Of a DNA stretch of 64,000 nucleotides, positions 18,389-41,538 are shown one piece after another. The notes below the pieces were generated by a model. That model did no database searches and had not been told where the DNA came from. It saw only the letters and a list, made by a program, of their open reading frames with translations. How positions within the stretch are numbered: the stretch's first letter is position 1; each line of letters begins with the position of its first letter. Made by a program: the position numbers and the translations under genes. Where the stretch lies: the NCBI GenBank assembly GCA_918026815.1, contig CAKJVC010000006.1:1426001-1490000 (forward strand), read 5' to 3'. This DNA is from Chalara sp. BL73. Taxonomy: Eukaryota; Ascomycota; Leotiomycetes; Helotiales.

Positions 18389-18448
18389 ATGGCTTGCGGG
18401 CTTGTACTGCTCGGCCTCGCCGCCATCACACACGCTTACACAAAGTTC

Positions 18449-18456
18449 GACACAAC
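18449..18456. repeat. hAT target-site duplication, left copy (GACACAAC)
   Basis: Identical 8-mers occur at 18449-18456 and 36462-36469, directly abutting the CAGTG and CACTG termini. Eight bp is the length made by hAT transposases. Confidence 0.95.
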
Positions 18457-19011
18457 CAGTGAACGAGTTAGTATCGTAGTATTTAGTAATATCGAGTCTC
18501 GAGACATATGAGATCGACTTTTTGATACTACGCTAGTATTAGTATGAGATATCTTGTAGAGCACTAGTATTAGTATGGAAATCGGATCTCATATCATATT
18601 GGCAATAATACTAAATACCGTGCCAAGGCTAGTTAGTCAGCTGAAATGCGGCTCTGCGGCTAAAACGTACCTAAATTATCGAGAATTTTCTGCTACCTGT
18701 CATCACCAACCTCCTTTTTTTCATCACAACACTATCACCAATATTTCTTTTTCTCTCCTTAAACGCCACTACGAAAGTTCCTGATACAATTAGAAACAAA
18801 AACCATGCTATAAAAAGGGTTATACAAAGTAGCCGGCTCGCGGAAAGGCTTCCTAAGCAATAGAGTTGTTAAGCTACTATGGTTCTTGAAGCGCCAACGA
18901 CTTTACGGAAATGAAAATCGACAATATTACCAAGTCCTGAACCTTTCGGCGTCTTAGGAATTCGGAAATATGTCGATTTTGAGTGTGAAATAGCTTATAT
19001 TTGGAAATATT

Positions 19012-19465
19012 TGTAACGTACGGGGTAGCCTTGGGCCTAGGTAGCTGGGCTTGTGGCTCGTTGGTTGGTATGGTGTATATGAAATAGACTAGGCACTGCT
19101 TCTCACGTAGGAGTGAGACGTTACAAGTATAACAAAGACTGTATTGCTAAACTATAAAGTAAGGTTGAGCACGAAGCTCCTAAACTATGAAACTACGACT
19201 ACTTATATACTATGGTGGCCCTGGAGTCTTCTGGAGTCTTTGGAGTCCATATGGACTCCCAAGACTCCTCCGGACTCCATCACGTGACGTGGTCGCGGTT
19301 TCCAGGGGTCAATAAGCCGTCTGCTCTTTTACCCACTTAAAGTCCTAGGACACTGGCTGATCCCGGGACCCACGTCCCTGGGATCCCCATTGGTCCTGGG
19401 ACGCCGGAGCGTCCTGGGGCTCTCCTCCTGGGGCCTCAGCAGGTCCCAGGATTCGGTTCGTGACA
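19012..19465. repeat. Solo LTR inside the hAT element (454 bp)
   Basis: Begins TGTAACG and ends CGTGACA, with identical ATATT duplications at 19007-19011 and 19466-19470. The body is more GC-rich than the surrounding hAT DNA and carries GGTCCTGGGA-type and GGAGTC/GACTCC short inverted repeats. No internal retrotransposon sequence remains, so it is a solo LTR left by LTR-LTR recombination. It lies in the hAT 5' region, before the transposase gene. It differs from the LTRs of elements B and C. Confidence 0.9.
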
Positions 19466-20166
19466 ATATTATGCCGTCGACGAGTCGAAGTAGAAATGAG
19501 GCTGTTACAGTGCATTTTGCTATAAGCATCAAGCTTGCAACTATTGCCTTTTTTGGTGCGAATAAACGATTTTAAGCAGTTGGAAACCCGGGCGATAATA
19601 ATAGATTCTTGGAGTAACGCGCGGCATAGCTGATTCGAGTTTCAAGAAGTAAAAGATTCTCGTAGCCTTGTAAATTGGCTTTGTTTTTAGTGATTTTAAG
19701 AAACGCGAGCTAATTCTGTTAAGTATAAAACCTCGACTTTTCCTTTTTCTCAATTCAGTATTGCACTTTTTGTATTATCGAATATTCTTCAGTATGTCGT
19801 TTTCAGAATTATCACTTAATTGCCTTTTCGATCATGCTCGAATTGAGCAAATCGAGAAAAATAAAGCGTTAGCAAAAGACTTTCAAAAAAATCAGGCTTC
19901 ATAGAATAAAACGATGTCAATCGCTTTTAGTAAAGAACTTACAAAAGATATTACTCCTGACCCATTTGCAGCTTTTTTTACTACTAATAGTAAACTGGAG
20001 GTAAAAGAATCTGCGACATTAATCGCAACTTCTTTTGCCAGCTTTCAGTCAGCTTTTGCAACCGACGATTGTGAACTTGATAATAAACGCAGTTTTAACG
20101 TATACAATCATCAACTTAATCCAAATCCTCAATTTGTACACCGCGACGACAAAAGCAAAAAAGTGT

Positions 20167-20455
20167 AGTTGTGTATACTGTTGCGGGGAACATGCTGAGA
20201 GCAAGAACAGCAACAGGATCTAGCACAAAACTCATAGGCGTGATAGCGGTGGCTGTAGCATACTGGAGAGAGCACCGGCGAGCCTAAGCTCTATATAATA
20301 GATAAACGTCAATAGCTTATAAAGGTGTAAAATATAGAAGGGTGGAAAAGTGTGTTGTATTGATGATGATGCGCCTCCCTACCGGAAGCGCAGGTTATAT
20401 ACAACTCATGCTCCTCAGGTCACATGACTGACCACTCATGAGTATCACGTGACAG
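20167..20455. repeat. LTR-like insertion upstream of the BED finger of the hAT
   Basis: About 289 bp of distinct composition separate the N-terminal part of the transposase frame from the BED finger. The direct repeat AGTGT flanks it (20162-20166 and 20456-20460). Inside are TGTTGCGGGG near the left end and CACGTGACA near the right end, LTR-like motifs, but the duplication does not abut a clean TG...CA. Exact borders are therefore uncertain. No coding sequence is present. Confidence 0.5.
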
Positions 20456-21495
20456 AGTGTGAAAGGAAAGAAAATCGTCCCCACCACAATACATTGCAAA
20501 AAAGCGTACAAAGTGACAGGAGGCACTAAAATCATTCGGTCGCACCTTTTGATCGCTCACGACATCCACAGCGATTCTATGCGCCAAACAAAGCTGAAAA
20601 AAGTTCGAGGAGCAATTAAAGATGCGATAAAAAAAGCTGCGAACTCAAGTAACGTTATTGCAATTGTATTTTATTTGTTTTAGTGTTGTAGTTGATTGAA
20701 TTAACTAAATCGAACTAACGATAGCAAAGTAAATCGAAATGTTTTGCCAAAACTTTACTCCGCACTAGTCTTATTTCGTCACGAAAACCACTTCAACACT
20801 ACATACTAATTCTTTTACAATTGACTATGCTAATTTGTACTTTATTATAGAAGCTTATAAACGACGTCGAATTGCTTTAAAATCCGAAATTCCTTCAAAC
20901 GAACCTCGAATCGATCTTTATGTTCTAGAAATACTAGTTGTTAAATAGGTAGCGGCTGCATCGATATTTTTGAATATAGTGGAAAGCAACGAATTCCGAT
21001 CGATTTTACAATACTTCAATCTTCATGCGACAGCTTATCTCTCTACTACGGGCTATACAATAAAAAAATAAGTTGATCGCATGTTAAAAAAGCAACAAAA
21101 GGCTTAATTAGAAAGAATTGCTAGTTGTCAGTCAAAAATCCATATTACAACTGACGCGTAGTCGTTATCTAACGGCATACTTACTTTAGTCATTATTTGC
21201 TACGGTATTTTCGACGGCAAATACGACCGCATTCTTTTTAGTTTAAATAAGATAATTAGTGCTTATACAAGCCGGAATCTTGCTTTACACGTTGTTAAAC
21301 GTTTAAAAAATTGGAAAGTATTTAATAGTCCTTATAGGCTCGGTTTTGTAGTAACTGACAACGCTTTATCGATAAATGTTATAATGCGCGAAATAAGCGA
21401 AAGTAAAGTTTTTTCAACGCTTCTTTTTTTCTGTAAAATAATAAGCTTTCCTACTGACTTTTGCAGTTATTCATAAGAAATACAGTGTAACAACT

Positions 21496-21698
21496 TGTAA
21501 GGTGCTGGAGTAGGGTGGCACAAGTCAACTGCAATTGATACGAAGACTAATCTCTACCTTCTCTACTACGTCCCGAGTCCCCTACTTATACCCTCCGAAC
21601 CTCTGGCGACTCTCTACGTGCCTATACGTGCCAAGCCTCAGTGCTTTTACCGAGCCCCCTTCAGTTCCTTTTAGCACGTGACTTCCTGGCGCCTGACA
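21496..21698 (-). repeat. 3' LTR of element B (203 bp)
   Basis: Pairs with 28118-28320. Of 11 differences between them, all transitions, the seven where this copy carries T lie in its right half, the side facing the element interior. Confidence 0.95.
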
Positions 21699-22060
21699 TT
21701 GCCCCTTTCTCTAGAACGTCGTCTCGACGTTCATGTTGGTATTGGAAACATTAAATGCTGGTATTATATCTTAGTATTATAGCCAGCTCGTAAAACAATC
21801 GAAAGTGAGCCGGAAAAAGCTTGTAGCGAGCAACAACTGGAGTACAATAAAAAGCGGAAACTGAGTACAATAAGAACAATCAACAACGCTTTTTAAGTAA
21901 ATAAGTAACAACAACAATAGCTTCCAGTTATAAACAGAAATAAGTAATAGTCGAATTTCAGCCTATAAATAAGCGTTTCTTTTCCGCTTAGCTGCGTTTT
22001 TTTTTTTTTTGCAACATTATCACTAACACTATTACTACTACTATTACTACTACTACTACT

Positions 22061-22234
22061 ATGTCTGCTTCGCGTTTTGCTTCCGTTTCGGCTTCAGCTA
22101 CTTTCGTTTGCTTTCGCTGCGCGAAAATTGCGAGCTTTAAGCTCGAAGTCTGCTGCTTTTTCGATAAAAAAAGCAGTATCAAGTGCTTTCGCTGCCGCGG
22201 CTTTAAAGCTAAATGTTTTTCTGTAAGTACTTTG
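22061..22234 (+). pseudogene. Antisense Cys-rich ORF inside element B
   Basis: The ATG at 22061, just after an ACT triplet run (22022-22060), opens a plus-strand frame opposite to pol. It reads FVCFRCAKI, then VCCFFDKKSS, then KCFRCRGFKAKC: C-x2-C, a central Cys pair, and C-x2-C-x5-C. After it, in several broken pieces to about 22800, comes a Lys/Arg-rich coiled-coil-like stretch. This matches the layout of the antisense frame in element A (2530-2015), including its place between the integrase end and the 3' LTR. Element C has no such frame. Function is unknown; a DNA- or RNA-binding accessory protein is a guess. Confidence 0.5.
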
Positions 22235-23168
22235 TAGCTTCGATACTTTTTCGATCTAACTTCGGCTAGCTGCCGGCTGCTTTTCGTCGCTGTAGTAGTC
22301 GCTTCGCACGCTGGTCGCGTTTGCTTCGGAAGCGTTTCGGCTCCGACGACCGCAAAAAGCGCTTCCGTGAAGCTATCGCCCGGATTTTTTCGGAGATCAA
22401 AAATTGTTCGGAAGCTTTGTTTTGCTAACAAGCTTACCTCAAAAAAGTAAAAGCGGTTTTTTTGGCCTTTTTTACGAAAGCCAAAAAAACCAATTTTCTT
22501 TTGCGAAAGTTAGTTAGATTGCAGCGAATGGCGGTAAGTAATCGAACTTTTTTCGACTTGTAGCCGATTTAATTTAGCTAAACCGGCATTAACGAAAACG
22601 AGAACGAGAATAAAAACAATAAAAATAACGATAAGAAAAAGATTGCTTCCGAAAAAAAGAAAAAAAGGAATAATAAAATAAAAAAAAAAAAATAAAAAAG
22701 AAAGAAAAAAAACGAAAGAAAAGAAGAAAAAAGTAGAAAAAAAGAAAAGAAAAAAAAAAGTCGGGAAAAAATCGGAATAGTAGAAAAAGTAGTAGCGGCT
22801 GCTTTAGCGACGAGTGGTTTTCTGGATGTTTAGCTTCGCCTGCGAGCACCCATCGTTTCGCCTCCGGGCTTTTGCTGTTTGCCTTCGGGCATAAATTGAC
22901 TACTTTGCTTTTTTCCGTTTTTTTTTTTCGACTTTCTTGCTATTTCAAACGTAGTTTTCCGGTAATACTCTTGTACTATTTCGCCGGCGCTTCGAAAGTT
23001 CTTCGCGGGCTTTTATAAGTTTTTCGCAGAAAAATACTTTTTCCAGCGTACTAAATACTTTATTCTCTTTTTTATAGTTCGGTAAACTTAAATAACTTTC
23101 ACTTCGTACTTTTTTTTTCTTTGTATTAAAATCAGCGCCGGTTCTTCGACGGCTTTTTTACGTTTATG

Positions 23169-26000
23169 CTACGGCTTTAATAAAAATACATAAAACACAT
23201 TGTAAATTTTGTAAAATAGCGGTAGCTTTAATTTGTAAGTTTGCCCGTAATTTTTTATAACTTCTACAACTTTAAATAGCTTTAAATATTTGTTTGCAAG
23301 CTTGCGGCTAAGCTTAAATTGTCGAATATTTTTCGAAGCAAGCATTACTTTCTTTTTTACGCGGAAACGAGTTGGCTTGTGTTTTGCGTCGTAGTACTTC
23401 TTGTATTTTTTGTAAGCTTTTCGAAAGTTACTCGAAAACTTTTTTTGTTTTTTTATTAAAAGCTTAATTCTTTTTTCAGCTGCCGGCACTTTTTTTTCGG
23501 GAACGTTGTTTCCGATGTTCAAGCTTAGCTTAAAATCGAAACCGTAAAGTAGTCTAAACGGAGTACTACTAGTACTTGCGTAAACAGAATTGTTGTGTGT
23601 GAATTCCGCTAAAACCAGTTTCGAAACTTAGTTATTTTGTCTGTAATTGCAATACGTTCTTAAATAAAATTCCAAAGTTTAATTCTGTTGTTCCGTTTAG
23701 CCGTTCGTTTACGGATAAAAAGCAGTAAAAAGTCGGCGGCGAATCTTAAAGTAATACATAAAGTTTTTTCAGAATTTGCTTGTAAAAACAAACTTTTTGT
23801 CGGTAGTAATTCTTTTTAAAAATCCGAAATTTTTATAAATATAATTCATAAACAGTTTCGCAAACTTATAAGCTTAAATACTTTTTCGTACAGTTATATA
23901 GTGTGCTAGTTTAGTGTATTTGTTAACTATAACTAGTATAAAGTTATATATTTAGTTGTGCTTTTTGCTAAGCGGTAAATCTGTAATAAAATCTATAGTT
24001 ATTTTTTTTTAAAGTTTTAAAAAAATAAGAATCGAAGCTAACTCGCTGTAAGTTCGGTGCTTTTTCGGTTTGCTCTTTTAGCATTTCGTGCACGTTTTAA
24101 CATATTTTTTAATATTATTTTTCAAGCTAAACTAATAGTACTTTCGGCTTATTAGCTCGCGCGTTTTACGCACGCCAAAGTGGCCGGCAAGCTCTTTATT
24201 ATAATGTACGTGAATTATTTCTGCGCGTATTAATTTCTTGTTAAAGACATATACAGCTTTCTTATAACGAAGTAAGCTATTTTTGTAATTTATGCTTTAT
24301 AGCTTTTTCGCCCCGGTTTGGCTTCGCTTCGTAGTTTTTTTAGTAATTTTTCGGACTAAAAAAAAATCAGTTTTTTGCAGTTTTGTTAAAACGTTTCGAA
24401 TCGGCTTCGTTACTTTACTATATACCGTTTCGGTCGATAACGACATAATCGCTACTTTCTGTAGCACGCGCTGTTTGCAACTAGTTATACTAGCAGCAAG
24501 CTTAAATTCAACTTTTCGGATTACGCCGCAGTACTTTCTGGCTTATAACTTTGTTATGTTTGTTTTTAGCTCCGGCATTTTACCGGTTCGAAAGCGCTTA
24601 CTCTCCGGAGTAAACGCGACTTTACACGAGCGCGCTTAACTTGTGCTATTTAAAAGCACACTTTTTAAATAGTTTTTTAAAGCATAAAACAACTCTGCTA
24701 TACGCAGTTTGTTATACAAAGTCGAGAAAAACGTTTTTGCCTTTTTTTCGTTTCGCTTTCGATTCGGCGTCGACTCTTTATAGTCCGGCTTTCGTAAAAG
24801 TCCGTTTGCGGAATTAGTTTTGCTTAGTTTAAACTTAATCACAAAATTAAACTCGTTTAAGCTTTCGGCTTATTTCGCTTAGCGGCCTGTAAGTTTCTTT
24901 TTTGTTATAAAATATTTTAAATTGTTGTAGTCGGTGCGAACTGTAACGGTATCGGCACTGCTTCGAAAGTATTGCTTTTATTGTCGAAAAGCATAAACTA
25001 TAACTATTAATTTTATGTCGTGAATGTTATATCGAAACTTAACAGAAGTAAGCTTTTTTAAGTAGAAAGCGATAGGGTACTATTTAGCTTTTTTTTCTTT
25101 TCCGAACAGCTGCGAAAAAATCCCGGCTATAGCCTATTTAAAGCTATTTGTTTTTACTTTAATTTTACGTTACAAATCAAAATGTTTAAACAGAAGTGTT
25201 TTTCGGAATTTTAATTTCAGAACTTTAAAGCTCGCTAGCGCTTCGGGCTTTATTCGAAAAGAAGCTATAAACTTTTTCATTTTCTTAAAAAAGTCTGTTA
25301 ACAGCACACAAATGCAAGCGTATTTTTTAATAAATCGTTTGTAAAAGTTAGTAAACCTTAAAAACACTTGAATATTTTTATAGCATATAAGTATAAGCTA
25401 TTTTTTTACGGTTTCTACGCAAAAAAGATTTATTTCTATACTTTTAAGCTTTACAATAAAGCTTAGAAACTTAACAGTATTCGTATTAAAACAGTATTTA
25501 GAAAAGTTTGCGTATAACTTGTACTTTCGTAGCTTTTCGAGAACTTTATAAACCGCTTTCGTATGGTTTTCGATTTTTTCCGAAAAAATAAGTATGTTAT
25601 TAAAGTAAACTACACAAATTACATCGACAAAGCCGATTAGCGCTTAGTTAATGTAAGCTTGAAATGTAGTTGAAGCGTTCGAAAGCTTAAAAAAAAAAAC
25701 CAAATATTCGAAGTAGCCGTATCGAGTACAAAACGCCGTTTTCTACTTATCGTTTTTTTTAATACGTATTCGGTAATAAGCATTAGTAAAATCTATTTTT
25801 GTGAATCGTTTTAAGCGACGAAGCTTATCCAGCGTTTCACTAATTAAAAACAACAGCGTTCTATTTTTAATCGTAACTTTATTTAATTTTCTGTAGTTTA
25901 CGCATAGCTTAAAAAAACTGTCTTTCTTAAGTACGAATAGAATCGGCGCTTTTACAAAGCTAGTAAATCGGCGAATTCATTTTTTTAATAAAAAAAATTC
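23169..26000 (-). pseudogene. Element B pol remnant: reverse transcriptase, RNase H, integrase
   Basis: The minus strand, ignoring stops, gives a Gypsy polyprotein. The reverse transcriptase active site, normally YxDD, reads YFNNILIFSE (about 25580), so both catalytic Asp codons became Asn. RNase H-like sequence lies about 25170-24880, the integrase region follows, and the open piece 23522-23169 is the integrase C-terminal GPY/F module (KYYDAKHKPTRF, then NIRQFKLSRKLANKYLKLF). Open pieces of 60-117 codons survive between stops. All seen changes fit RIP. It is not functional. Confidence 0.85.
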
Positions 26001-27565
26001 GAAATATTTTTTCAGTATTGTTAATTTTTTTTTTAAAAACGAGTAAACGAAGCTTTACAGCAGTACTGTTCTCGGCTTAAAGTTAATTCGATGCTTTATC
26101 GAATAATGCTTTAGTAAAATGCTTGCAGAAACGTTGTTAAATATATTAGCATAGTTTGTATGCTTAAAAAAAAGCAATATTAAGCTTTTTTTTACTCGCC
26201 GTAAAACTAAACAATAAATTACTTGGTTTTTGCTGGCTTTGCAAAAGTTTTTAACGTTAAACATTTTAATCTAAAACGTTTCGAAAAAGTATCGCTAGCT
26301 TTTCGTAAAAAAACGTATAACTAAGTCGATCTGCTTCAGCTAAAAGTATTTTAATATAAAAAAAACATTTAGTATATTAAAGTCGCACGCTACGAAGTCG
26401 TGTCGGTAAAGTTTTGTAGTGCTTTCGGAATCAGTAATTGCTAGCTCGATATTGTTGATTTCGTAAGTAACAACTTTTTTTTTTTTTACTGTAGCCAGTT
26501 GGAACTAGGCGTTTTTCGATTTTTAATTATGTCGCATAGCCAAAGACTGTTTTACGCAGCTTTGCTTCGTACTGCTGTCAATAAGCGCTTGTACTTTCTT
26601 TGTTTTTTCTTTAGCACTAAATACTTGTACCGAAATAACTATTTGTTTTTTTTCTGCGTTTTTGCTCGTTTTTTTTAGCAGAAAAAATATTAAAAACGAG
26701 CTTTTTCGTTTTTCTGCTTAAGCTTTAAGCAATTAGTAGAAATGTGACTTTTCTTTTTGCAATTGTAGCATTTTATATTAAAGCATTTAAAGAATAGATA
26801 ACTTTTTTTACTGCACCGATAGCATCGAATAGTACTACGTTTACTTTTTGTGCCGGTACCGATAAAAGTGCGATTCGCTTTACTTAAAGTGCTTTTTGTG
26901 TTTTTTTGAGTATTTTCTGCTATAAAGCGTTAAGCCGGCGTTTCTGATTCGGCCGTAAACGTAGAAGTATCGGCGCTTTTTCGCAGGTTTTTTGTGGCTC
27001 TTTTACTTAAACTACTAAAGTTGCTAATGATTTTTTTTGCACTTTTTATTTTTCGAGCCAAAAATATTAGCACTTTCCGGCTTTTAAAGAAATTCCTATA
27101 GCGCAATATGCTTGTTTTCAGGTTATTTTTAAGCTTTCCGAATAGCGTACGTTAACGATGTGCATTATTTACGATTCCCAGCTTTTTTTCGAGCGTTTTT
27201 AAGTGTATTGCAAAAGCTTTTACCGACTGGTTTTTTCGCTGTTTAGTGTTTTTTAGCTTGCTAGCTGCGTCTAGTTCTCGATTGTTTTTATCCGTAAAGC
27301 AATTATAAAAAAAAGCCACAAACTCTTTTTATGTAGTATTGCCGACTTTTACTTTCGACTTATAGCCGTTCTACTTTTGTTCCGTTATTACATCGAAAGC
27401 GGGGACACAATAGTTTATTTTTTGCGTGTTATTAAAAAAGTAGTAATTTTCGTTTGCCCTGAAACAGCGTTTCGCGGCTAACACAAAAAACTGCACTTTT
27501 AATAAAGTTTTTTTTTTAAAATCAAGTAAATCTTTAGGTTTTAGTACCGGTTGCTGAAAGAATAG

Positions 27566-28051
27566 CTAGCGTTCAGGCTTTTTTTTAAATTTTGTTCTGT
27601 TCGGAAACGTTTTACCGGTTCGCCGGCGGCGTTTCGCTTTAGTTTCTTTTTCGGCCAGTTTCTGGCTTTTTTCGAAATTATTCAAGCTACGCAACTGCTT
27701 TTTTAATATCTTTTTCTGTTTTTTGACTTTTTCAAGTTTTTTAGCAGTGTTGTTTGCTTTTGTAAGTCTTTGCTTTTTGCGTTGCTTTGTTTGACGTATT
27801 TCTTTTTGAAGTTCTGCTACAATAAATAGCTCGCAGGCCAATGTATTTTGTGTGTTTATAACAACGTCGTTTTTTTGCCGTTCTTGAAGCGTTTTGTTTT
27901 CGATTTTTTCCGAGTGTTGACTTTTTTCTGATTCTTTGCGCACACGGGTTGTACCAGGTGAGTCAAGACTCAGGTTTTTTGTAGAAGACCGAGTAATAGA
28001 TCGACGAACTGTAAAAGCAAATCCAGCTGCTTTCTTTTTTCTTTTCGACAC
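27566..28051 (-). pseudogene. Element B Gag-like N-terminal ORF
   Basis: A 161-codon open frame immediately inside the 5' LTR of element B. It is basic and rich in Lys, Arg, Glu and Gln, with a coiled-coil-like central part (KLEKVKKQKKILKKQL). Further down the same strand a zinc knuckle reads CYNCKKKSHISTNC (about 26780), the C-x2-C-x4-H-x4-C pattern of Gag nucleocapsids. The frame between them is broken by stops. Position and composition identify it as the start of Gag, although no capsid motif is visible in this piece. Confidence 0.6.
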
Positions 28052-28117
28052 TATGGCGTTTTGGGTGCGATACTCTTTTGACTCGTGCCGAACTACACTT
28101 CGTGAAAAAGATTAGAA

Positions 28118-28320
28118 TGTAAAGTGCTGGAGTAGAGTGGCACAAGTCAACTGCAATTGATACAAAGACTAATCTTTACCTTCTCTACTACGTCCCGAGT
28201 CCCCTACTTATACCCTCCGAACCCCTGGCGACTCCCTACGTGCCCATACGTGCCAAGCCTCAGTGCCTTTACCGAGCCCCCCTCAGTTCCCCTTAGCACG
28301 TGACTTCCTGGCGCCTGACA
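28118..28320 (-). repeat. 5' LTR of element B (203 bp)
   Basis: Partner of 21496-21698. The four positions where this copy has A or T against G or C in the partner lie in its left 60 bp, again the side facing the interior. Confidence 0.95.
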
Positions 28321-28325
28321 CAACT

Positions 28326-28603
28326 CAAGCTGCACAGGGATCTCGATCCGTGGATCTAGGTAGAAGGATGCAAAGGTATGAACAACTATCAATTGTTATA
28401 ACTAAGAGAACAAACTACAGGCAGAAAAAGGGGAGGAAAGCAGTGCTTTATATACAGGATGCTGGCCGGGGGCCAGTGTAAGCGAGCTTTGTAGTGTTAG
28501 TTGCCAAGCTTTAAAGTGCCGAGCCCTGTAGTAACAAGGGCTAAGCTCTACCGAGCTCCGCAGTGCTTGGCGCTAAGCTCGAGATAGGGCCAGGGCCGTG
28601 ACA
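28326..28603 (-). repeat. 3' LTR of element C, main part (split by element B)
   Basis: With 21486-21495 it makes 288 bp, matching 34628-34915. Its C-to-T and G-to-A differences cluster in the right half, next to the element interior. Confidence 0.93.
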
Positions 28604-29674
28604 TTACCTTCTCCTTCAGTGTAGCTTGCTTTCAAGCTACGGCGGATCAAAAATAGAATGTAACAATCAAAAATCAAAAATCAAAATCAAAAAAATCCAC
28701 TTTCCCGGCTTCCGTAGCATGCTTTACTTATTGTTATTTAAGCGATCAGCCGGTTTCTTGCTCTGCAAGTAGCAATTAAGCCAGTATTGTAAATTTGCCG
28801 GAGGACTTTTAGCTTTAAAGTACTCGTTGTAAAAAGCTTTCAGCTTGTATAGCGCCTTTTTGAATCTTTCGGCATTATAAAATACAAAGTCGTAATTTAT
28901 GCTTACTTATTTTATTTGGTACTAAAGTTTTCGGCGGTACTTTCGGCTTTGCAAAACTTGTTCGATTTCTTATTCCGGTTGTTGGTTGTAAACTACAAGT
29001 ACTAAAAGCTTTTAATGCTGGCTTGGTAGCGAGTCACCAGGGTTTTTCCGCAAAAGTTCCGGTGCAAAAACGTTATGAAACTGATTGCTTTCTGGAAGCT
29101 TTAAGCAATACGAGTAACTTACTTGTTTAGTGATTTCGTATAGGCCTTTATTCTGGTAGCTTAGTTTTCGGCTTGGCCGTTTGCTAGTCTAGTTTTTTGT
29201 CGAAACTTACACTTTGTTTTTGACTTTAAAGTCGACTGGTCGTCGGTGCTTGTTAGCTTGTATTGTTTGTTGCTTTTAAGCTTTGGCTATTTTAGTTTTT
29301 GTTTATTCTTAAGTTTCGTGAATTTTTTTAATATAAGCTTAAGCATTTTTCCGAGCTTTTTTAACATGCTGTGAAACTGAAACAAAGTTTTTAAGACGGA
29401 CCTAGTTTATGTCTATTCGGAGCTAATAGCTTAGCTCGACTATAAAAAAAAACAACTTTGTAAAGTAATATAGCAAACTAGCTGCTGCGTAGTTTATCGC
29501 ATGAATTAAAGTAAACCAGTTATTTTGAAAAGCATTAGCAAAAAGACAGAAGCGTTGATCGATTTATTAATTTGCGTTTTCAGTTTAACTGTTTGTTTAA
29601 AAGTAGTATACTGTCGAAAGTTTAAGCTTTGTGCTTAAAAGCCGGCAAAACTTATTTTAAAACGCAGAAATAAA

Positions 29675-32017
29675 CTAAAGTCTTCGATTCGACACGATAG
29701 TTGTAGCAAAACTATAGTATTTATAAACATGCACTAAATACAGCTGAGCTATAGTTTTAGCGTTGACTGTTTTGTTGCAAAAAATCGAAATAAAGCGTTT
29801 GCCGAGCCTGTTTATAAACACGCATACTATATTTATGCTTTTTTTGTCGAAAAGCATATTTTTGAAATCAACTAATATATACTGCCAAGAACGGTCCGGT
29901 ATTAGCAGTAAGTGCAACAGCTCTAGAGTTTTGTTTTTAGAAACTTTAAACTTACGGCAAGCGTAACAATTGTTTACGAAACGCTTAATATCGTTATTTA
30001 TTCCGAGCTAGTAGTACTGTTCTTTAATCAGCTTTTTTGTTTTGTTTTGGCCTGGGTAAGCTGTAGCTAAACTACAGTGTGATGCTGTAATTAAAGCAGT
30101 TTGTACTAATTCGGCTACTACAAGCCGGCTTTTTTTTTTTAGCAACTCGTTTTTTAAGCTGTAGTTTTTTTTGCTTTTTTGACTTAGCTTTTTTGCAAGA
30201 TTTAAGTTTTGAGCAGTTCGGTTAGCTTGCAGAATTTCGTCGATTAAATCGAGCTGTTTTTCAATTAGCGACAACAACAAAGCTACCCGGTTCACTTCGA
30301 GCTTTGCAGTGTTTAACGCTAAGCTTGTATCGAGTTTTACAGTGCTTAACGCTGAGCTTATATCGAGCTTTACAGTGTTTAACGCTGAGCTTATATCGAG
30401 CTTTACAGTGCTTAACGTTGAGCTTATAGCGAGTTCTTGAAGAATTTAAGGATCAAGCTGTACTAAAAATAAAAAAGCCTGATTTCGGTTTTTTCGCTTT
30501 GTTTAGTCCAAGCTTTTTGTCTGGTTTTGTCGTGTCAACGAGTCGGCTTTGTTGTGCTTGCCGGGCTTGTAAAATATTTTGAAATAGTACCGAGAAAAAA
30601 TCTTAGCTTAACGGGCTTGTTTAGCTGATAGCAGCTTGCTCGATATAAAGTATTTTAAAGCTTTGTGATTTGTAATTACTTTAATGTGATTTTTAGTGCT
30701 TTCGAGCTCGGCACGCTAATATTGCAACGCTTTAACAATAGCTAGCATTTTTTTGTCGTGAATTGAGTAATTGGTTTCCGCGAGAACTATAGTTTTAAAG
30801 AAATACTCTATAGAATGCTATTTACTGTTAAAGCTTTTTTGAAAAAACACAGCTGCTACTACAATGTTCGAAACGTTCGTTTCTAATATGCACTAACTGT
30901 CTAAATTGTAGTAAGCCAGCAAAAAAGCACTTATTAGCATAGTTTTAAGCTTGTTGAATGCTTAAGTACACTTGTTGTCGAAAACAAACTTATAATCAGC
31001 ACGAGTCAACTGAATTAGCAGTGTCGCAATCTGGCTGTAGCTTCGAATAAACTTTCTGTAAAAATTGCAAAAACCTAGAAAAAATTAAACTTTTTTAACT
31101 GTTTTCGGAAGTTCCTAGTTTGCAATTACTTGTATTTTGTCTGGATTTACTTAAATGCCGTTAGTCGAAACAATGAATTTTAAGTACTTTGTTCGCTTTA
31201 CACTAAATTCACACTTTTTGATATCGGCTTGTAAGCCGGCAGTTTGCAATTTGTCGATTACTTGCTTTACGTGTGCTTTGTGCTGTAGCTCGTTTTCAGA
31301 GTAAATAAAAATGTTATTAAAATATACTGTGCAAACTACATTTAACAAGTCTCGAAAAGTGTCGTTAATGTAGCTTTAAAACGTTGCCGGCTTATTAGTA
31401 AAGCCAAAAAGTAGAACTTTGTACTAAAACAAGCTATAGCAAATGCAGAATGCTGTAAGCTTTTCAGATTCTGGAAAAATCCGGATCCGGTGAAATGTTT
31501 AGCAAATATTTAGTTTTGTAAAAACTTTAGCTTTGCTTAGCTTAGCTAGCGTTTCGTTAATTAACAGCAAAAAATACCGGTTTTTTTTAGTTAACGAATT
31601 CAGTTTTCGGTAGTCGACACAAAAACGAAGTAAACCGTCCGACTTTCGCGCAAACAAAACAAGTAATGCAAAAAAAGCTTTGCTAGTAACAACAAAACTT
31701 TTTTTTAAATTAGCTGTTAAGTAGTTTCGCATAGTTTCAAGCTTTTCGATTAAATGCTTGTTTAAATAGCAAAACTTTAAAGTATTGTTTTCTGTAAGCT
31801 CAATTTTGTAGTCGATACTTCGGTGTAAAGCTAAAGTGTTTAATTTTTGCTTCGAGAAAAAAGCTAAGCGACTATAGTAAGTGCTCGGAATTTGGTTTTG
31901 TAAAAATTCTTTTAATTTAACAAACTGCTGTTTTTGCTTTCGATTTTCAATTATCCGGTTTAAGCCGTTTAACGTAATTGAAAATAGCTCGATTCTTTGT
32001 TGCCGAGCGTTTAGCAT
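29675..32017 (-). pseudogene. Element C pol remnant: reverse transcriptase to integrase
   Basis: Reverse transcriptase: HRSIDYKIELTENN, FARKSDGLLRFCVDYRKLN and AKVFTKLNIC in the open frame 32017-31499, then YFNNIFIYSE in 31348-31151. The catalytic YxDD reads YFNN and the first catalytic Asp region reads KLNI, both Asp-to-Asn. RNase H is broken. The integrase zinc region (30295-30008) keeps HCSLATAYPGQNKT and ends KEQYY; the catalytic region (29917-29675) keeps the first Asp (VDFKN) but the second, in TIVSNRR, is Asn. A 33-bp tandem repeat interrupts upstream of the integrase zinc region. Not functional. Confidence 0.85.
30298..30429 (-). repeat. 33-bp tandem repeat, four units, in element C pol
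   Basis: Four 33-bp units (each opening CGAGYTTT and containing CAGTGYTTAACG) lie head to tail. The period is a multiple of three and adds 11 residues per unit in the pol frame between RNase H and integrase. Units differ at a few positions, mainly C/T and G/A. Confidence 0.9.
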
Positions 32018-32246
32018 AAACCCGTTACTAGAAATTATTTTAATATTTAAGTATGTACGCCGGCCAGGCTTGTCAGGCCGACTATTTCCTTCTGCTTTAG
32101 CGAAGCTTTTTAGCTGAAGTTCTGGCTTGGCTTTAAGCTGGTAGTCGTAAAAGCGAAAAAGCTTACTAGCTATGATTTTCAGGCTTTTGCTGGTTTCTCG
32201 AGCCTAGGTTGGCCCGTAAGCGCTAGCTCGGGTAAGCTTCCGGCTG

Positions 32247-32340
32247 GCTGTAGCAAAGCTCGATTTCTGGGGCACGAGCTTCTAGCTAGCTGTAGCAAAG
32301 CTCGATTTCTGGAAAACGAGCTTCTAGCTAGCTGTAGCTT
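32247..32340 (-). repeat. 42-bp tandem repeat in element C
   Basis: Two full 42-bp units starting GCTGTAGCAAAGCTCG (32247, 32289) and the start of a third (32331). The period is divisible by three. It lies upstream of the reverse transcriptase on the coding strand, in the Gag-protease region. Confidence 0.8.
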
Positions 32341-34145
32341 CTCGAACAGTATAAACCGCCTAAACAGCTTAAACAGCTAGCTGTAAAGCCTGAACAACCG
32401 GCTGCCGAACAGCCTGTACAGCCTAAACGTGCAAATAGTCTTTCGCTAGCAAAGCCTAAACTAAGCTTACTGTCAAAGCTTTGATCTGAATGCCGTTCAA
32501 GCGTTTTTTGTCGTTTTTAGCGATTGCTTTGTTTCGGCGTAGCATATTCTGCTAGTATTGTATTTGAACTTGCTGAAGTCGAATATTGTTTTTTAAGTAA
32601 GTAGTTATAGTTCTGGAATAAGTGTATATTAGTAGAAATTCTAAAAGCTACTGTAGCTGTCGATAATAAACATTAATTAAAATCCGAAAATCATATTATA
32701 AAAGCTTAGCTTTAAAATAAGTAAAAGAAAGTTGTAAATCCGGCGGCTATCAATTTTAATGTTGAACAAAAAATACTAAGAAATAAAAAATCTTTTTTTA
32801 CTATCGTATTTTTTCGAATAAATAAAATAAAAAAGCCGTTTAAGCTTCAACTCAAAAATGCGACAAAAGTTTAATGCAAAACGAGTATTAATAAAAACAT
32901 AACTACTAGTTCCGGTATTACTTAAAGCTTTAGCTTGCACTGTAATTTCGTTTTTGTAAAAAGTGTATATTACAGTAAAAGAATTGCCGGCTATTAGTAA
33001 ACTTAGATCGATTTGTTAAAAATCGAACACGTAAGCTTTAAAAAAAAAGCTTTGGCTTAAAACTGTTCGTTTTCCGATTTATTTGCGTCGGCTTTATTTT
33101 GTGCTTTATTACTTGAAACTTTTTTTTGCTTAATTTCTTGAATTCTAAGTGTTGCTTAAGAATTTAAGCAAAAGCTTGTAAAATGCTTTTTTTCACTGTA
33201 TTTGAAGCAAGTGCTTTAAAAATAATCCGGAGCTAAGCTACGAGCTGAGCTAAAAGTGCTGTTACGGCTTATAGCTGGGCCTGAAATAGCACGCTAGAGT
33301 GCTGGCGAAAAAGCTCGGTAAACTTTCGGAGCCGAAAAAAGTCTTTAACGTTTAAAAGCCGAAACAGCATTTAGCTTAGCTTGACGCGCTAATGTAAAAA
33401 GAAATTGTCGATAGAATTCTTGTAAATTAATACTTAGCCGTTAATATTCGTGTACTAGTTTTTAGTACGTAAAGTGCTAATAGTGTATAGCTAAAAGTCG
33501 GTTCTGGAATTCTTTATTTAGCTTTTTTTACAAATAGCTTTTTTAGGTCGAAGAAAAAACTCGTTTTACAGCAGCTAAACGAGCAAACTCGGTATAAAAA
33601 TCATTGAAGTTTTGTGCAGTTTGTTGTTTTAAAGCGTAAAACTGGTTTTCGGCTTTTTCGGCTTCAAAATAGTTTCGAAAAATTGTGTTTAAGTAAGCTA
33701 GCATTTCGTCGACAGAAAGCTAAAGTTTTAAGCTATTTTCGTTATACCGAAGCGAAAAATAACGCTGTGCTTTACTTATAGTACAGCCGAACACGTAATC
33801 GATTCGTTTTTGTTCTGTAAGCTACTAGTCTGCATTTGCTTTAAACTTTTTTCGTAATAAGGATTTTTAAGCAATGTACGTAAGCGAAATGCCGTTGTTT
33901 AAAAAGTCTAAGTTTCGGTGCTTCGAAAAAAGCTTTTTTAAGTATAGCCGAAACTTATGCCGCTTACTAAACTTAAGCTTATAGTTGCTATCAGAAAATA
34001 AGCTGTCTAATAGTAACGCGTTTAAGTCATTTTCTTGTTTTTGAAGTAATCGAAAAGTCGAAAGTTTTTTTACTAAAAAAACTAAGTTGCTTAGTTTTGT
34101 GGCCGCTAACTGTTCTAGTAATACACGAAACTAGCTGTTTGAAAG

Positions 34146-34379
34146 CTAAACAGAAGTTTTTAAAACATCAGCTACTTGCTGATTCAATTGATTGCGTACG
34201 TTTTTTTCAGGTTTTTTGCTAACTGACGACCGGCTTATTTCTTTAAAAGTAGCAGCTGACAACGTTGCTTCAAAAGTAGTACAGTCGTTTAGTTGAACTA
34301 AAAAAGTACTTTTTATCGAAAAGAGTTTAAAGGGCGTTTTTTGTCTTTTTTCGACAAGCTTCTTTTTTGTCGTAAGCAT
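34146..34379 (-). pseudogene. Element C Gag-like N-terminal ORF
   Basis: A 77-codon open frame just inside the 5' LTR of element C, rich in Lys, Ser and Thr, with no recognisable domain. Position alone suggests the start of Gag. The following 2 kb on the same strand are Gag/protease-like but broken by many stops. Confidence 0.5.
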
Positions 34380-34627
34380 ATTGCTGTAAAATAAATTCGA
34401 AAATAAAAAAAAGTAGTAGTAATAGCTTAACTCGACTAATTAAAAAAAGCGGCTTAACCAGTATGTGCTAAAAGCTAGAGTTAGTGTATACAGGCTTTAA
34501 CTTTAGCTTATATTTCTACAGACTTCGTTTGTAGCGTCGTAGAATAGTCTTTACGGTTCTGATTCAATACAAAAAAAAAAGATATTATTAAGCTCCGTCT
34601 CCGGAAAGTTTGTAAAGTTTGTTTTAA

Positions 34628-34915
34628 TGTAACAATTCAAGCTGCACAAAAATCTCGATCCGTGGATTTAAGTAAAAAAATGCAAAAATATAAACAACTA
34701 TCAATTGTTATAACTAAGAAAACAAACTACAGGCAGAAGAAAAAGAGGAGAGCAGTGCTTTATATACAGGATGCTGGCCGGGGGCCAGTGTAAGCGAGCC
34801 CTGTAGTGTTGGTTGCCAAGCTCTGGAGTGCCGAGCCCTGTGGTAACAGGGGCCAAGCTCTACCGAGCTCCGCAGTGCTTGGCGCCAAGCTCGAGATAGG
34901 GCCAGGGCCGTGACA
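34628..34915 (-). repeat. 5' LTR of element C (288 bp)
   Basis: Intact copy beginning TGTAACAATTC and ending GGCCGTGACA, followed by the TACAG duplication. G-to-A changes relative to the other copy are concentrated in its left half, facing the interior; its right half is the less mutated of the two copies. Confidence 0.95.
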
Positions 34916-36461
34916 TACAGCAAAAATTAAAACCCTAAAATTCATCGAATTCGCTGCCAGAGTCATATTATTAACCTGGCTAGTCAGTTTTTCCTTCATA
35001 CCGCCGCTGAAGATTCTATCGACGATATTTTTGCTCCAGCCAACAACGCTTGTTAAAATGCTCTTAAAAAAAAAGAATTGAAAAAATAAAAAAAATTTAA
35101 GCCTATTAGTAAAGCTCATAATAACGCTAATTTCATTGCGCGTTCTCCAGAACGTTTACAACAATTCAAAGCGATTTCTGGAAAGTAAGTAATTCGTCGC
35201 GATAACGTAACAAAATAAGTTAAAACTGATCAAGTACAATAGTTACTAATTGTTCCTATCTTCAATTAAGTAGCATTCTTTTTTAAGAACGATCAAATCA
35301 ATTTTATTACTTTGTATTCGTGAAGCTTTACTCAAATTCTACAAAAAGCACCCTAGCGCAATTCTTTTTCCTGATCGAATTACCAGCGACGATTACATTA
35401 AGCTAAAACGTATTGTAAAGTTCTTTCAGCTTCTCGAAAATGCTACTTTATTTACGGAATCACACAAAAGTACTATTAAGAAATAATTACCGAATTTGAA
35501 GTTCGTAATAGAGTGTTTTAAGAAAAGCAAAGAGCGCTATAAAGATCACGCTTTCCTTTCAGCGTCGATCAATTCAGGATAAAAAAAGCTTAATAAGTAT
35601 TATATCTTTACAAATGAATCTCTAGCTTACGCTTTTAGTGTTGTATTAAATCCTACTCAGAAATAGGCTTATTTTGAAAAAGCTTGGGCCGATTACTTAC
35701 AGTAGTTAATTTCAATTAAGAAAAAAGTCGAGGATTATTAGAATGAAAAGTACAAAAATAAAAGTAAGTAGTTAAAGATTCCGGCGTTCATTACTAACTA
35801 ATCCGTAATTAGAGTCTCTCGTACTACGACAGCTCTTTCTAATTCTCTCGACGTTCAAGAAATCTCTTAAAATGCGTACTTTGCTCATTTACAAAAGCGT
35901 CGGCGTTCACGCTCTCTAGCGCCAAAAGATAAGCTACAGGAATACCTTTCTTTCCCTACAACTCAAATAGCTCTTAGCGATTCTTTCGACTTTCGTATTT
36001 GGTGGTTATCACAGCAAAAAAGATAGCCAAATCTATTCTAAATAGCTATTAATATTTTGGGGATACCTTCTATATCGACCGACGCTGAAAAGGCGTTCTC
36101 TAGCGCAAAATTGACTATTACGGATCGTCGTAATCGTTTTTCTATGGCTACTGTAAGTGCTTTGGAAAAGATTAAACAGTGGATGAGCGTAGATCACTTT
36201 ATCTACGAAGATCTTCTAAAGGATCAAAAGCTTGTAATAGAGCAAATTTAGGTGAGTGCTCGTAGTGGTTTAAAACGTGATACTAATTAGGAATAGCGTC
36301 ATTTAGAGTTGGTGTCATAGTATATCGCAGTATAGTATGATACAATATAAGATTGCAGATTTTGCTGTGATACGTATGCAAATTTCAAATCTCATATTGC
36401 GTGGTGTATGGTATTGTATTTTAGAGGTCGATATATCACGAGAATACTAACTCGATCACTG

Positions 36462-36469
36462 GACACAAC
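36462..36469. repeat. hAT target-site duplication, right copy (GACACAAC)
   Basis: Matches 18449-18456 exactly and follows the CACTG end of the hAT. Confidence 0.95.
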
Positions 36470-37961
36470 ATGTACCGTGCCTTCGGTTCCCTCTAATTTC
36501 GTCTCGTCCCCAGACTCTCGAGGGACACTCGACATTCTTTGGAGCTGTCTCTTCACGATAATCGCATGCACTTGGACAGTTCAACACCTCAATGTTCCCG
36601 AACAGCGAGAGGGCAGCGATCCCGGCTTTTGGGGTGATATCAAATGGATGTTAAAGCGTGCTTGGACTGGGACGAAATGGATGTTGGCGACGATTCTTGC
36701 GCCTGAGTTACTGCTTGCCAAGGCATGGGGAGATCTAGGGGACGCGAAGTACGACCTAGACAAGCTCAAGGACCTTGCTTCTGAAGATGGGGTTCCATGG
36801 ACTTTGACTCATTGCCTATTTGCCAATATGGGGGGTTTTGTAATCAGGGGTTACAGTGATCGACCCGAGGCGAAAAAAACACAAGCGACAGATCTTCCTC
36901 CAGCAGTGCTACAGAGCGACGTCATACCTCAGCCTCGAGTTAGTGGGCCTACGGAACCTGAGGTGACGTCTGTCCCATGTAGCAACTCGAAGACAGAAAA
37001 TACCAATACGAAGAACGGAACTCCAGAAGAAGAAGGGAATATTCTTGTGCCAGGACACAAAAATCTTTTCCACCTCACAGCCCCAGATATCATTGAACTG
37101 AGGACAGTCAAGTTGCTATCCAAGCTACCATATGTGACCATCGACGAAATTAACGACAAAAGCAAAAGCGACGCGTTCGTGCGCACGATTTCTATCGTAC
37201 AGATTATCTGGGTTGTCATTTTGATTCTCACTCGGGTGTTGCGGCATCTTGCGGTCTCTCAGCTGGAGATCGGGGTCCTTGCGTTTTCGGCTTGTGCTGT
37301 CATTATATATATTCTCAACTGGGAAAAGCCAAAGGGCGTTCAAACCCCGATTACGATAGCCTGCTATTCCAGAGAGATTCCAAACAACATACTGGAGAAG
37401 CTCAAGACGCTGAAGGAGCCTGAACACACAAGCACGGGCAATATCGCCGGCAACGTAAGAAGATTCAAGAATCCCGCCTCTATATTGGGATCACGCAATC
37501 CATCCAGTGCCTTGGGCTCGCCAATTCCTAACTATTACACCCGTAATCAGAGGGGGGGTGAAATGTATGGACTGATTCTGGGCAGCTTGGTGTTTGGAGG
37601 TATACACATTGCTGCCTGGAAATTCGAATTCCCTTCGAGGATAGAACAGATAATGTGGCAAGTGGCAAGCTTATTGTGTACAGCTATTTCTATAGTGTGC
37701 ATTCTATGGGCTTGTCTTATGTTTGGTACAGGGCTGCTTATAGTGCCGATCTCTGCGTATATTGGGCTAATATCAGGAGAATCGACATTTTTGCTAGCAG
37801 CGATGGTATTTGTATTCTCAGGAGTTGGAATGGGCTTTCCTTTAGTGCTCTATGTACTGGCAAGGCTATTCTTGTTGGTTGAAATATTTCGTACCTTGTG
37901 CTTTCTCCCTCCTGACGCATACACATCAACGTGGGCGTCTAGTATTCCTCATGTATCCTGA

Positions 37962-38292: not shown

Positions 38293-40417
38293 TCAAATCA
38301 GATCAAAATCCTTCTTCGTCAACTTTCCATCCCCAGCCCACTGACTTGCGAGTCCATCCATGAATCCATGAGCATACGCGGTACCAATAACCTCCCACTT
38401 TACTCCGCCATTTCCATGATGGCCGACACTCTTCCTCTCCCGAAGAACAAGGGGAACCTTCCCACCATCAACTGCAGCCACTAAATCACCAATTTTAGAT
38501 ATATTATTGTCCCCAGATAATCCCCCCCAAGGAACCATGGCATACGGTCCGCCACCCAACTCAGCGAACTGCCATTCGCTCGTTAAAGAAGAGATCCCAG
38601 TCCCACTAGCTACCCTACCCATCTCGTACAACAAGTCCTTATCCCCATCATATTTATCATACTGTCCAAGTTTTGGATCGCTTAATGGCAGCTGAGAGGT
38701 CTTTTGGCGCCATTCATTGAAGATCTCTGTGTACTTCTTCAAATCGCCTTGATTCAGCCTCCGAGACGGATGAGCTAGGCAGTCAGTCATCAAAGTTCTC
38801 CAATAGGCCGCGAATGCATTCCCGCCAGTGACGTAGGATATATCTTCCGAATTGGGATCTGCAATACCATCGGGCATCTAGTCTCGTGCCCACGGTGAGA
38901 AGTAGTGGCCACCAGAGTATGCCATTTTCCGAGTCGGTTTCATTGTTTTTATGGCTCCAAGGACAATACCCGTGACAGAAAGCGCGCCATCGGGGCCGAT
39001 TTTAACGGGAGATTTGCATTTCTCTGCTCCAGTAGAAAAGATCGAACGTTGAGCAAAGAGAATCTTTTTAGCTATTGTGCAGGAGAAATTTGGAAGCCAA
39101 GAAGGAAGGTTCTCAACCAGCGAAGACGGATTGTCGGAATACCTCCACTCTGCATGCAGAGCAGTGGAGGACGTATGTCCGAGTGGCCAGAGACTCTGAG
39201 TGACTATATCGAGATTTTGAGCCGAATTTATCTGAGCCCGTGCTACGTCAATGTAGACTTCTTGGGGAGTCTCTTTGTAGTCGGGGATGATGTCGAGATT
39301 GTCTGTTGCTAGACCCAGGAGTCCATAGGTTTTATCTCGAGGATCGGTGCCTAAGTGTATTCAAATCAGAAAAAAATACGCGTATCTCAAACAAGAGAGA
39401 ATATTTCAACGGTTTAATGTTGTTTGGGAGTAGAAAACTATGAATCACAGCTTTCTCTTATCCCGCTTATCCCGGATGCAACAATATATCCCATCAACCA
39501 CTTGGGGGCAAGTCTTCCTAACCACAGATTGAATTAGCCTTACTGTAAGTAGCTCGAAAGCGTGACAAGACATCCAAAAGCGTTGAATTGATCGGAACAG
39601 TCAAATTGAGAGCCTCTCTCTGATGCTCGATGACCTGAACCTTCGAGAAAGCATCCCAAATATCTTTGTCATACATCTGATGGCTAAACGCCAGATGATA
39701 TCGGTCGGAGGTACCTGAATGATCCAATATACCGCTTAAGGTTTCCCAAGGCAGTGTTAATTTCCCAACAACTAATACTGCTCGAGGACAGCACGCGATT
39801 TCCTGCATCACCCAGACTCGCTCCCATAGAGTAGGGTATTCTAAGAGCTCTGGGAGACTCCGAGAGCCTATGTCATCGAGACCCAATTTAGAGAGCGAAA
39901 CGAGCTTATCTGATCCTATAATTCCAAAATCCTTCGCACCCCGATCAGTAAGACGTTGAAGATTCAGACTTTTCATGCGCTTGACAGCGTCGATTACAAG
40001 TTGGGTACACTCATCAGACTCGCCAATCCCCACCAAATCTACAGCACAAGAACTATAGATACCCTTCATAAGTCTGACTTGCTGATTTCGTTCTTCGATA
40101 TTGCTCTGGTCAATACAGATGGCGTCAACCCAGACTATACGTGGCTTATCAGGCAGGCGCAGGTACCGAAGAGCAAGTTCAAGGTTGGTAGTGACTTTGA
40201 GGCTTGCGCCATCTATCTGCAAAATTGCCTGAATCTTAGGATCTCCCCATGCATATAAGAGTGTTTCATAAATGGGATGGTCGTCGAGTGTAACCTCCAC
40301 GAGATTGCACGTAATGGGTGCGGGAAAGTAGGCTGATGGTTGTAATATGGCAAGTCGAAAGCCTCTAGAACTTGAGTCCACTAATCGGTAGGAATATGAA
40401 GGAGATAAAGTTTCCAT
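38293..40417 (-). pseudogene. HET-domain protein gene with one in-frame nonsense codon
   Basis: Exon 1 (40417-39544) carries the HET blocks: YETLLYAWGD (residues 50-59), IVWVDAICIDQ (about 94-104) and ERVWVMQEIA (about 199-208). An intron at 39351-39543 (GTAAGG donor, TTCTGATTTG branch region, TTAG acceptor) joins in phase to DPRDKTYGLLGLA, the usual next motif. The frame then runs to 38881, where a TAG (38880-38878) stands as codon 449. It continues open for 194 codons to 38293 with YVTGGNAFAAYWRTLMTDC, YAMVPWGG and AYAHGFMDG, the typical C-terminal part. Without the stop the protein would be 643 residues. A TGG-to-TAG change would explain it. The HET domain itself precedes the stop, so a truncated protein is conceivable. 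Confidence 0.85.
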
Positions 40418-41538
40418 GTTGGACTGTCTTATGCAACTTATGAGATCGAAATTCGGTGATATTGCTGAGAGATGTTGGAGAAGTAGGTGAGAGGGAGGGG
40501 ACGAGGAAGCTGAAAAGTCTGAAGAAATGCATAATATAGCGAGGCGCCTAATGAGCCTCCAGCGAAGACAACATTCGCTAAAAAAATAAAAAAAACATTT
40601 TAATGATTGAAAACGTCAACATGAATAAAAACGGCTTAAAAAGAAAACAAGGACAGAAGGGAGATCGTTGTAACGGCTGTGGTAAACGAGGGTGGTCATC
40701 GTGAGACGAGTAAAACGGCTTGGACGATTTTGGGATCTTGAAGCAGACGGCAGTAATGAGGTTGAGAAGATAGGGATTCCCGATTCGTAGTCTTTTGGGG
40801 GAGAACTGGATAGCTTGCACTGCGATCTATTCACAAACTGATCTCTACTCTTGTAGCCAAGCCGCTAATAATTCGGAAATGGTTCGGAGCCTCGGCGGCC
40901 TTGACATAAGTCTATGACTTTGGATATGGACTTTAGCCAGGTGCTATAGTTCACTAGTTACACGGCGCATATGAGGAAGCTTATCAAAAGTAAAGGTTGC
41001 TACCGGGTTAGCTAGGATAGCAAAACAGCTGACCACCTAATTGAATCTCTATAGTAGCTAGTTATAATTAAATAAAGAACCAAATCGGATCCCGGCTTCT
41101 ATAAAGGTAGGTGACTAGAGGCAAAGACAAAAGGGAAAGATAGAATATGCTTTAATTTATTGATGTGGTAATACTGTTTACTGTTGGACATATTTAAATA
41201 CCAACTATACTGTTTTTGTATGCTATATACTCAGACCACAAAATTCCTAAAGATTATACTATGGCTCTATCGGCAATCAAATCCAAGTATCTGGTGACGT
41301 ATTCGAGATCCTTTCTCATAGATCTGGTCAAGCCACTTCCACGGCGAATAAGGCGGAGTAGAGAACCCATCCATGCGCGAATATCCTTTGCATGATAGGT
41401 ACTATAGCAGGGAATCAACCATAAAGCAAATGCATACATCACGTCTCCAAGCCTAATTTCGTTCAGTATCGCGCTCTATTCCGACCTAACCCCAGGGTTG
41501 GCTAATTAACTACATATCCGTCCTCATCTTGTTCTTGC
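40418..41538. other. Unassigned region
   Basis: About 1.1 kb. The left part should contain the promoter of the HET gene. A 62-codon minus-strand frame (41254-41442) has a hydrophobic start and a basic end but no recognised motif. Frames at 40578-40834 are AT-rich shadows. Confidence 0.4.

What the first reader, a model, noticed from the sequence alone, without database searches (positions are those of the whole stretch)
18389..37961. A membrane-protein gene cleanly split by an 18-kb transposon nest, restorable by precise excision
Seen directly: a signal-peptide start at 18389 is cut at 18456, and the rest of the coding frame resumes at 36462. The two edges carry the same 8-mer (GACACAAC). Counting it once, codon 21 continues in frame into 499 further residues without a stop. 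The gene parts show no RIP damage although the intervening 18 kb is heavily mutated. Gene predictors would call a false start at 36408 inside the transposon end.
Basis: partly seen in the sequence, partly recalled or inferred. Interest (0 to 1): 0.88.

Follow-up and report, generated by a model that had tools for sequence, protein, structure and literature searches.

The report
Fungal gene split by jumping DNA
A fungal membrane-protein gene has been cut in two by a cut-and-paste transposon that later collected four more mobile elements; the cut is clean, but it is one of several made by the same transposon family, and nothing shows that the gene can be restored.

Summary
A hAT transposon (18457-36461) sits in codons 21-23 of a membrane-protein gene, with CAGTG...CACTG ends, an 8-bp target duplication (GACACAAC), and BED and hAT domains in a sister copy. 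Unnested copies measure about 3.79 kb. This one grew to 18.0 kb through two solo-LTR-like inserts and an LTR retrotransposon that itself holds another. The gene frame is open on both sides in the same phase. The hAT copy carries 202 private C>T/G>A changes, while the gene part has ordinary composition.

Two additions. First, the family splits genes repeatedly: 10 of 11 copies with both ends have perfect 8-bp duplications. One copy splits a second member of the same protein family, and a close uninterrupted relative in the genome gives a natural empty site for it. Second, the C>T changes in the hAT need a pyrimidine before the C and mostly avoid G after it, and two identical hypermutated copies sit at unrelated sites.

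"Restorable by precise excision" is not shown. No continuous transposase frame was seen in the copies scanned, and no other strain could be examined. The open frame is expected for a young insertion. It is a new case of a known kind.

The parts
18389..18456 (+). 5' part of the split gene: start codon and leader, ending in the first target-site copy
   Evidence: translation; chance test
18449..18456 (.). target-site duplication GACACAAC, left copy
18457..36461 (+). hAT transposon with everything nested in it (18,005 bp; own parts 18457-19011, 19471-20178, 20493-21485, 34921-36461)
   Evidence: alignment to three unnested copies of 3790-3794 bp; domains in sister copy C1
19012..19465 (.). 454-bp solo-LTR-like insert X (TG...CA), duplication ATATT at 19007-19011 and 19466-19470; repeated elsewhere in the genome
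20179..20488 (.). 310-bp solo-LTR-like insert (TG...CA), duplication ATAC at 20175-20178 and 20489-20492
21486..34915 (-). LTR retrotransposon B, duplication TACAG (21481-21485, 34916-34920); its 5' LTR is split by element A; 3' LTR about 34628-34915; strand from its open frames
21496..28320 (-). LTR retrotransposon A, inserted 10 bp inside the left LTR of B, duplication CAACT (21491-21495, 28321-28325); LTRs 203 bp, 94.6% alike; strand from its open frames
   Evidence: SH3_Tf2-1 match in ORF 23169-23627
36408..36461 (+). ATG and 17 further codons inside the hAT end, open into the gene frame: a spurious start
36462..36469 (.). target-site duplication GACACAAC, right copy
36462..37961 (+). 3' part of the split gene: 499 codons and stop; five hydrophobic segments by a hydropathy cut-off; no Pfam match at E 0.01

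Best explanation
A hAT element jumped into codons 21-23 of a membrane-protein gene and duplicated 8 bp (shown by anatomy). Afterwards three elements landed in the hAT and a fourth in one of those (order shown by nesting and duplications). The repeats were hypermutated C to T (shown for the hAT), while the single-copy gene was spared (inferred from its composition and open frame). As it stands the gene should be a loss-of-function allele (inferred). It is one of several gene hits by a hAT family that was active not long ago. Whether this copy can still leave is open.
For: hAT ends and 8-bp duplication; unnested sister copies of 3790-3794 bp that align in four blocks in order; zf-BED, Dimer_Tnp_hAT and a sub-threshold hAT RNase-H match in sister copy C1; 10 of 11 perfect duplications; open frame and same phase on both sides; paralogues with a leader at the same place. 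A second case in the same protein family is C9:1712427-1734165, duplication ATCGTATC. The uninterrupted relative at C100 matches the N side up to residue 207 and the C side from residue 206 on (83%, 91% and 87% identical over three stretches), and its DNA has the target 8-mer once, with one base different.
Against: Free global alignment of the leader to two paralogues' leaders is not significant, and the anchored test was chosen after that. The C106 copy lacks a duplication.
Confidence: 0.94

Rival explanations
1. The insertion is a reversible switch: the hAT is still excised by an enzyme made elsewhere, and some strains or nuclei carry the restored gene.
For: Outer ends are intact. Copies C62 and C77 are alike (0 mismatches, 8 gap columns of 3800) although C>T/G>A-changed at 504 and 505 counted sites. 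They sit at sites with different duplications and no flank match, so a hypermutated copy has moved or been converted. More distant hAT relatives (26-37% identical) have open frames up to 411 codons.
Against: No open stretch over 235 codons in the three full-length copies scanned (introns not modelled); over the queried 173 residues the window copy has four stops; 18-kb length; hAT excision mostly leaves footprints (recalled). The open gene frame needs no such allele: at 0.4-0.55% divergence the chance of no stop and no frameshift is 0.45-0.33 (assuming 0.1 indel per substitution).
Confidence: 0.06
2. The 3' part is still expressed from the ATG at 36408 as a protein with a transposon-made N-terminus.
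For: The ATG is in frame and the frame of 517 codons is open.
Against: It replaces the hydrophobic leader by an arginine-bearing stretch; no expression data were available; the open frame is expected from youth alone.
Confidence: 0.1
3. The leader at 18389 is an unrelated chance frame and the gene begins elsewhere.
For: The leader fails the global shuffle test against two paralogues.
Against: Same phase across the duplication; a leader of this kind lies before 0.65% of random cuts, and the anchored match to both paralogues is reached by 0.14% of random 20-mers.
Confidence: 0.03

Closest known systems
Fungal hAT elements (Restless, Crypt1, Tfo1, Drifter, VdHAT1)
   Same: CAGNG ends (PMC3441728, passages); BED finger and a usual length of 2.5-5 kb for hAT (PMC2874221, passages; unnested copies here 3.79 kb); hAT dimerisation domain; 8-bp duplications (the hAT rule itself recalled)
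   Different: The window copy is inflated to 18 kb by nesting; no continuous transposase frame seen in the copies scanned. No sequence comparison with the named elements was made
Repeat-induced point mutation (RIP)
   Same: C to T changes in repeats; CpA together with CpT is reported for Botrytis, Sclerotinia and Magnaporthe (PMC4352252, passages)
   Different: In the hAT CpC is hit nearly as often, CpG is spared, and a 5' pyrimidine is needed: 41% (C) and 21% (T) of sites against 3% (A, G) in the window copy
Transposon-disrupted fungal genes
   Same: Loss of function by insertion into a coding exon, as in transposon traps (recalled)
   Different: Two members of one uncharacterised membrane-protein family are hit by one hAT family in one genome

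Membership tests
hAT superfamily | 8-bp target-site duplication | tested here: met
   10 of 11 copies with both ends; C106 fails
hAT superfamily | short terminal inverted repeats starting CAGNG | tested here: met
   CAGTG in 14 of 14 left ends read, CACTG in 16 of 16 right ends read; the C67 row that starts inside the query, and C9:1577358 and about 21 short right-end rows, were not read
hAT superfamily | transposase with BED finger and hAT C-terminal dimerisation region | tested here: met
   pieces of sister copy C1: zf-BED 24.7 bits (cut-off 20.6), Dimer_Tnp_hAT 71 bits (21.4); hAT-like_RNase-H 20.6 bits, below its cut-off of 27; two further pieces no match
hAT superfamily | complete transposase reading frame | tested here: inconclusive
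   longest open stretch 235, 235 and 234 codons in C1, C88 and C178; introns not modelled
RIP | C>T in repeats, not in single-copy DNA | tested here: met
   202 of 218 private changes in the window hAT; gene part has ordinary dinucleotide indices, though no orthologue was there to compare
RIP | CpA preference | tested here: not met
   window hAT: CpA 18.7%, CpT 18.3%, CpC 14.2%, CpG 3.3% of sites changed
RIP | RID-type methyltransferase | tested here: inconclusive
   DNA_methylase domain at 3 loci, 4 matches, one locus with two stops; class not assigned
RIP | premeiotic action on duplicated DNA | not testable with these tools
   needs crosses

The most novel reading that the evidence does not exclude
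Hypermutated hAT copies stay mobile with an enzyme made elsewhere and fall preferentially into one family of membrane-protein genes, making presence/absence alleles that can revert; and the mutator that marks them is a RIP variant that reads both neighbours of the cytosine (YpCpH).
Probability: 0.08. Interest if true: 0.7.

Novelty: new member of a known kind. Interest (0 to 1): 0.42.

Why it matters
It is a clean case of gene loss by a DNA transposon in a fungus with strong repeat hypermutation, and it warns annotators: the gene could be called from a start inside the transposon. The genome also offers a natural empty site for a sister case, a hypermutated copy that seems to have moved afterwards, and an unusual C>T context that can be tested genome-wide.

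Tried and rejected

Global alignment of the leader against two paralogues gave no significance. I then used an alignment anchored at the conserved Phe, chosen after the first result, so its 0.14% is optimistic. Pfam gave nothing for the 499-residue part.

That the GACACAAC at 28317 belongs to the insertion: rejected, an accidental junction. That retrotransposons A and B are two side-by-side insertions: rejected, A lies in B's left LTR.

Preference of the hAT for this gene family: 2 of 14 left-end sites fall in a family of about 15 loci (my count over). By hand arithmetic (15 x 1.6 kb of 58.7 Mb, 14 sites) chance is about 1.5e-5, but this is after the fact, uncorrected for the number of families, and the family size is a lower bound. 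No structure prediction was run.

Full report
What was checked. The 8-mers flank CAGTGAACGAG... and ...CTCGATCACTG, inverted ends of the hAT type.

The transposon. The window lies in an unnamed assembly of 58.66 Mb in 199 contigs; that it is fungal is inferred from its genes (HET domains). Searching it with the two hAT ends found a family (40 of 245 and 40 of 103 candidates scored). I read the 14 left ends that match from query base 1, and all 14 start CAGTG. I read 16 right ends, and all 16 end CACTG. Eleven copies have both ends, and 10 of the 11 have perfect 8-bp duplications, ten different ones; C106 has none. Three unnested copies measure 3794, 3794 and 3790 bp and align to the window in four blocks. 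Pieces of the C1 copy carry zf-BED, Dimer_Tnp_hAT and a sub-threshold hAT RNase-H match; two further pieces match nothing.

The nest. From the junctions (with the unnested sequence) the order is as follows. The hAT went into the gene (GACACAAC). A 454-bp solo-LTR-like element (ATATT), a 310-bp one (ATAC) and LTR retrotransposon B (TACAG) went into the hAT. LTR retrotransposon A went into B's left LTR, 10 bp from its edge (CAACT). Both LTRs are repeated in the genome (40 of 207 and 40 of 478 candidates scored). Of five retrotransposon ORFs scanned with Pfam one matched (SH3_Tf2-1, 30.4 bits against a cut-off of 30).

The gene. The 499-residue part has five hydrophobic segments by a hydropathy cut-off and no Pfam match at E 0.01. 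By my count searches point to about 15 related loci. Nine sequences aligned over one block keep D, Q, R, E and K invariant. Paralogues C159 and C168 have a leader before the conserved Cys. Statistics for the leader are mixed: global shuffles are not significant (402 and 1241 of 2000), and the anchored match is reached by 0.25% (C159), 10% (C168) and 0.14% (both) of random 20-mers.

A second case. At C9:1712427-1734165 a hAT copy with perfect duplication ATCGTATC splits another member of the same family on the other strand. The close relative at C100 is uninterrupted (566 codons). It matches the N side up to residue 207 and the C side from residue 206 on (83%, 91% and 87% identical over three stretches), and its DNA has the target 8-mer once, with one base different. 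The C9 gene also has a stop and a change of frame.

Other sites. I scanned selected flank pieces with Pfam, each flank alone (10 pieces, 5). An aldehyde dehydrogenase gene lies on both sides of C1:105836. One-sided matches are an FMN oxidoreductase (C106), a SAT domain (C88), a Ulp1-type protease (C1:238805) and, in a frame that ends 171 bp off, DUF7928 (C62). The right-hand pieces of C88 and C62 gave no match. With the two family genes, 3 of 14 left-end sites have gene evidence on both sides and 4 on one side. Of the other 7, two (C178, C3:777) were scanned without a match and five (C59:407, C59:122, C169, C77, C196) were not scanned with Pfam.

Hypermutation. Against three sister copies the window hAT has 218 private changes, of which 202 are C>T or G>A (62 and 140). 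Per site: CpA 18.7%, CpT 18.3%, CpC 14.2%, CpG 3.3%. By 5' neighbour, against four copies: C 41%, T 21%, A 3%, G 3% in the window copy, and 74, 51, 9 and 7% in C62 and C77. Other repeats bear this out only in part. LTR B (n=8) agrees on both sides. LTR A (n=6) shows the 5' effect, but its CpA is as low as its CpG (2/156, 1/102). Solo LTR X (n=9) shows the 5' effect clearly and the 3' effect weakly. The 179-bp hAT end (n=11) has its highest rate at CpG (10/143). Two internal retrotransposon stretches had too few copies. CpA together with CpT is reported for Botrytis, Sclerotinia and Magnaporthe (PMC4352252, passages). I saw no report of a 5' pyrimidine rule in searches (listings) or in passages of PMC4352252, PMC13297926, PMC12543289 and PMC10294615; most subscription journals are missing from that library. 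A TpCpG context is reported for the basidiomycete Microbotryum, so a 5' preference as such is not new.

Age and selection. Private changes of other kinds in the window hAT are 16 in 3796 columns, and 12 of 2171 A/T sites (0.55%); against four copies by majority the other changes are 35 in 3710 columns. At 0.4-0.55% divergence the gene part would stay open by luck with probability 0.45-0.33, assuming 0.1 indel per substitution; at 1% it would be 0.14. Had the gene part been hypermutated at 20% of its YCH sites, its 32 stop-making sites would leave a chance of 0.0008, so the gene was spared that. Neither selection nor an excised allele is needed to explain the open frame.

Excision. C62 and C77 are alike over 3800 alignment columns but for 8 gap columns, carry 504 and 505 counted C>T/G>A changes, have different duplications and no flank match. 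The simplest reading is that a hypermutated copy moved with an enzyme made elsewhere; gene conversion is the alternative. More distant hAT relatives with open frames up to 411 codons exist in the genome. Later excision of other copies is therefore possible in principle, but for the window copy nothing shows it.

Noticed in passing
window 18457-36461; L011, L012, L028, L029: C>T hypermutation of hAT copies needs a 5' pyrimidine and avoids 3' G (YpCpH), unlike CpA-biased RIP; other repeats agree only in part.
   Followed up: partly
G000 C62:1590388-1594183 and C77:206044-209839 (L011, L029, L012, L028): Two hypermutated hAT copies without a single mismatch between them at sites with different perfect duplications: apparent movement after hypermutation, or gene conversion.
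   Followed up: partly
L030 and L004 (C9:1712427-1734165): A second member of the same membrane-protein family split by the same hAT family; C100 (L056) holds an uninterrupted close relative.
   Followed up: yes
window 36283-36461: The last ~180 bp of the hAT recur in about 21 short rows at 81-94%, probably short non-autonomous relatives.
   Followed up: no
window 38293-40615: HET-domain gene on the - strand with one in-frame stop between ORFs 38878-39360 and 38293-38877 (an intron is not excluded); another HET gene at 15125-16765 on the other side of the split gene.
   Followed up: no
window 12854-13029 / 13234-13409: 176-bp inverted repeat, 96% alike, 204 bp apart.
   Followed up: no
window 42347-43082 / 48254-48989: Diverged direct repeat of about 740 bp, 73% alike.
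   Followed up: no
L032 and L033 (C137, C80): hAT copies with the same bases after the right end and 99.4% identical right flanks over 1.5 kb: segmental duplication rather than separate insertions.
   Followed up: partly
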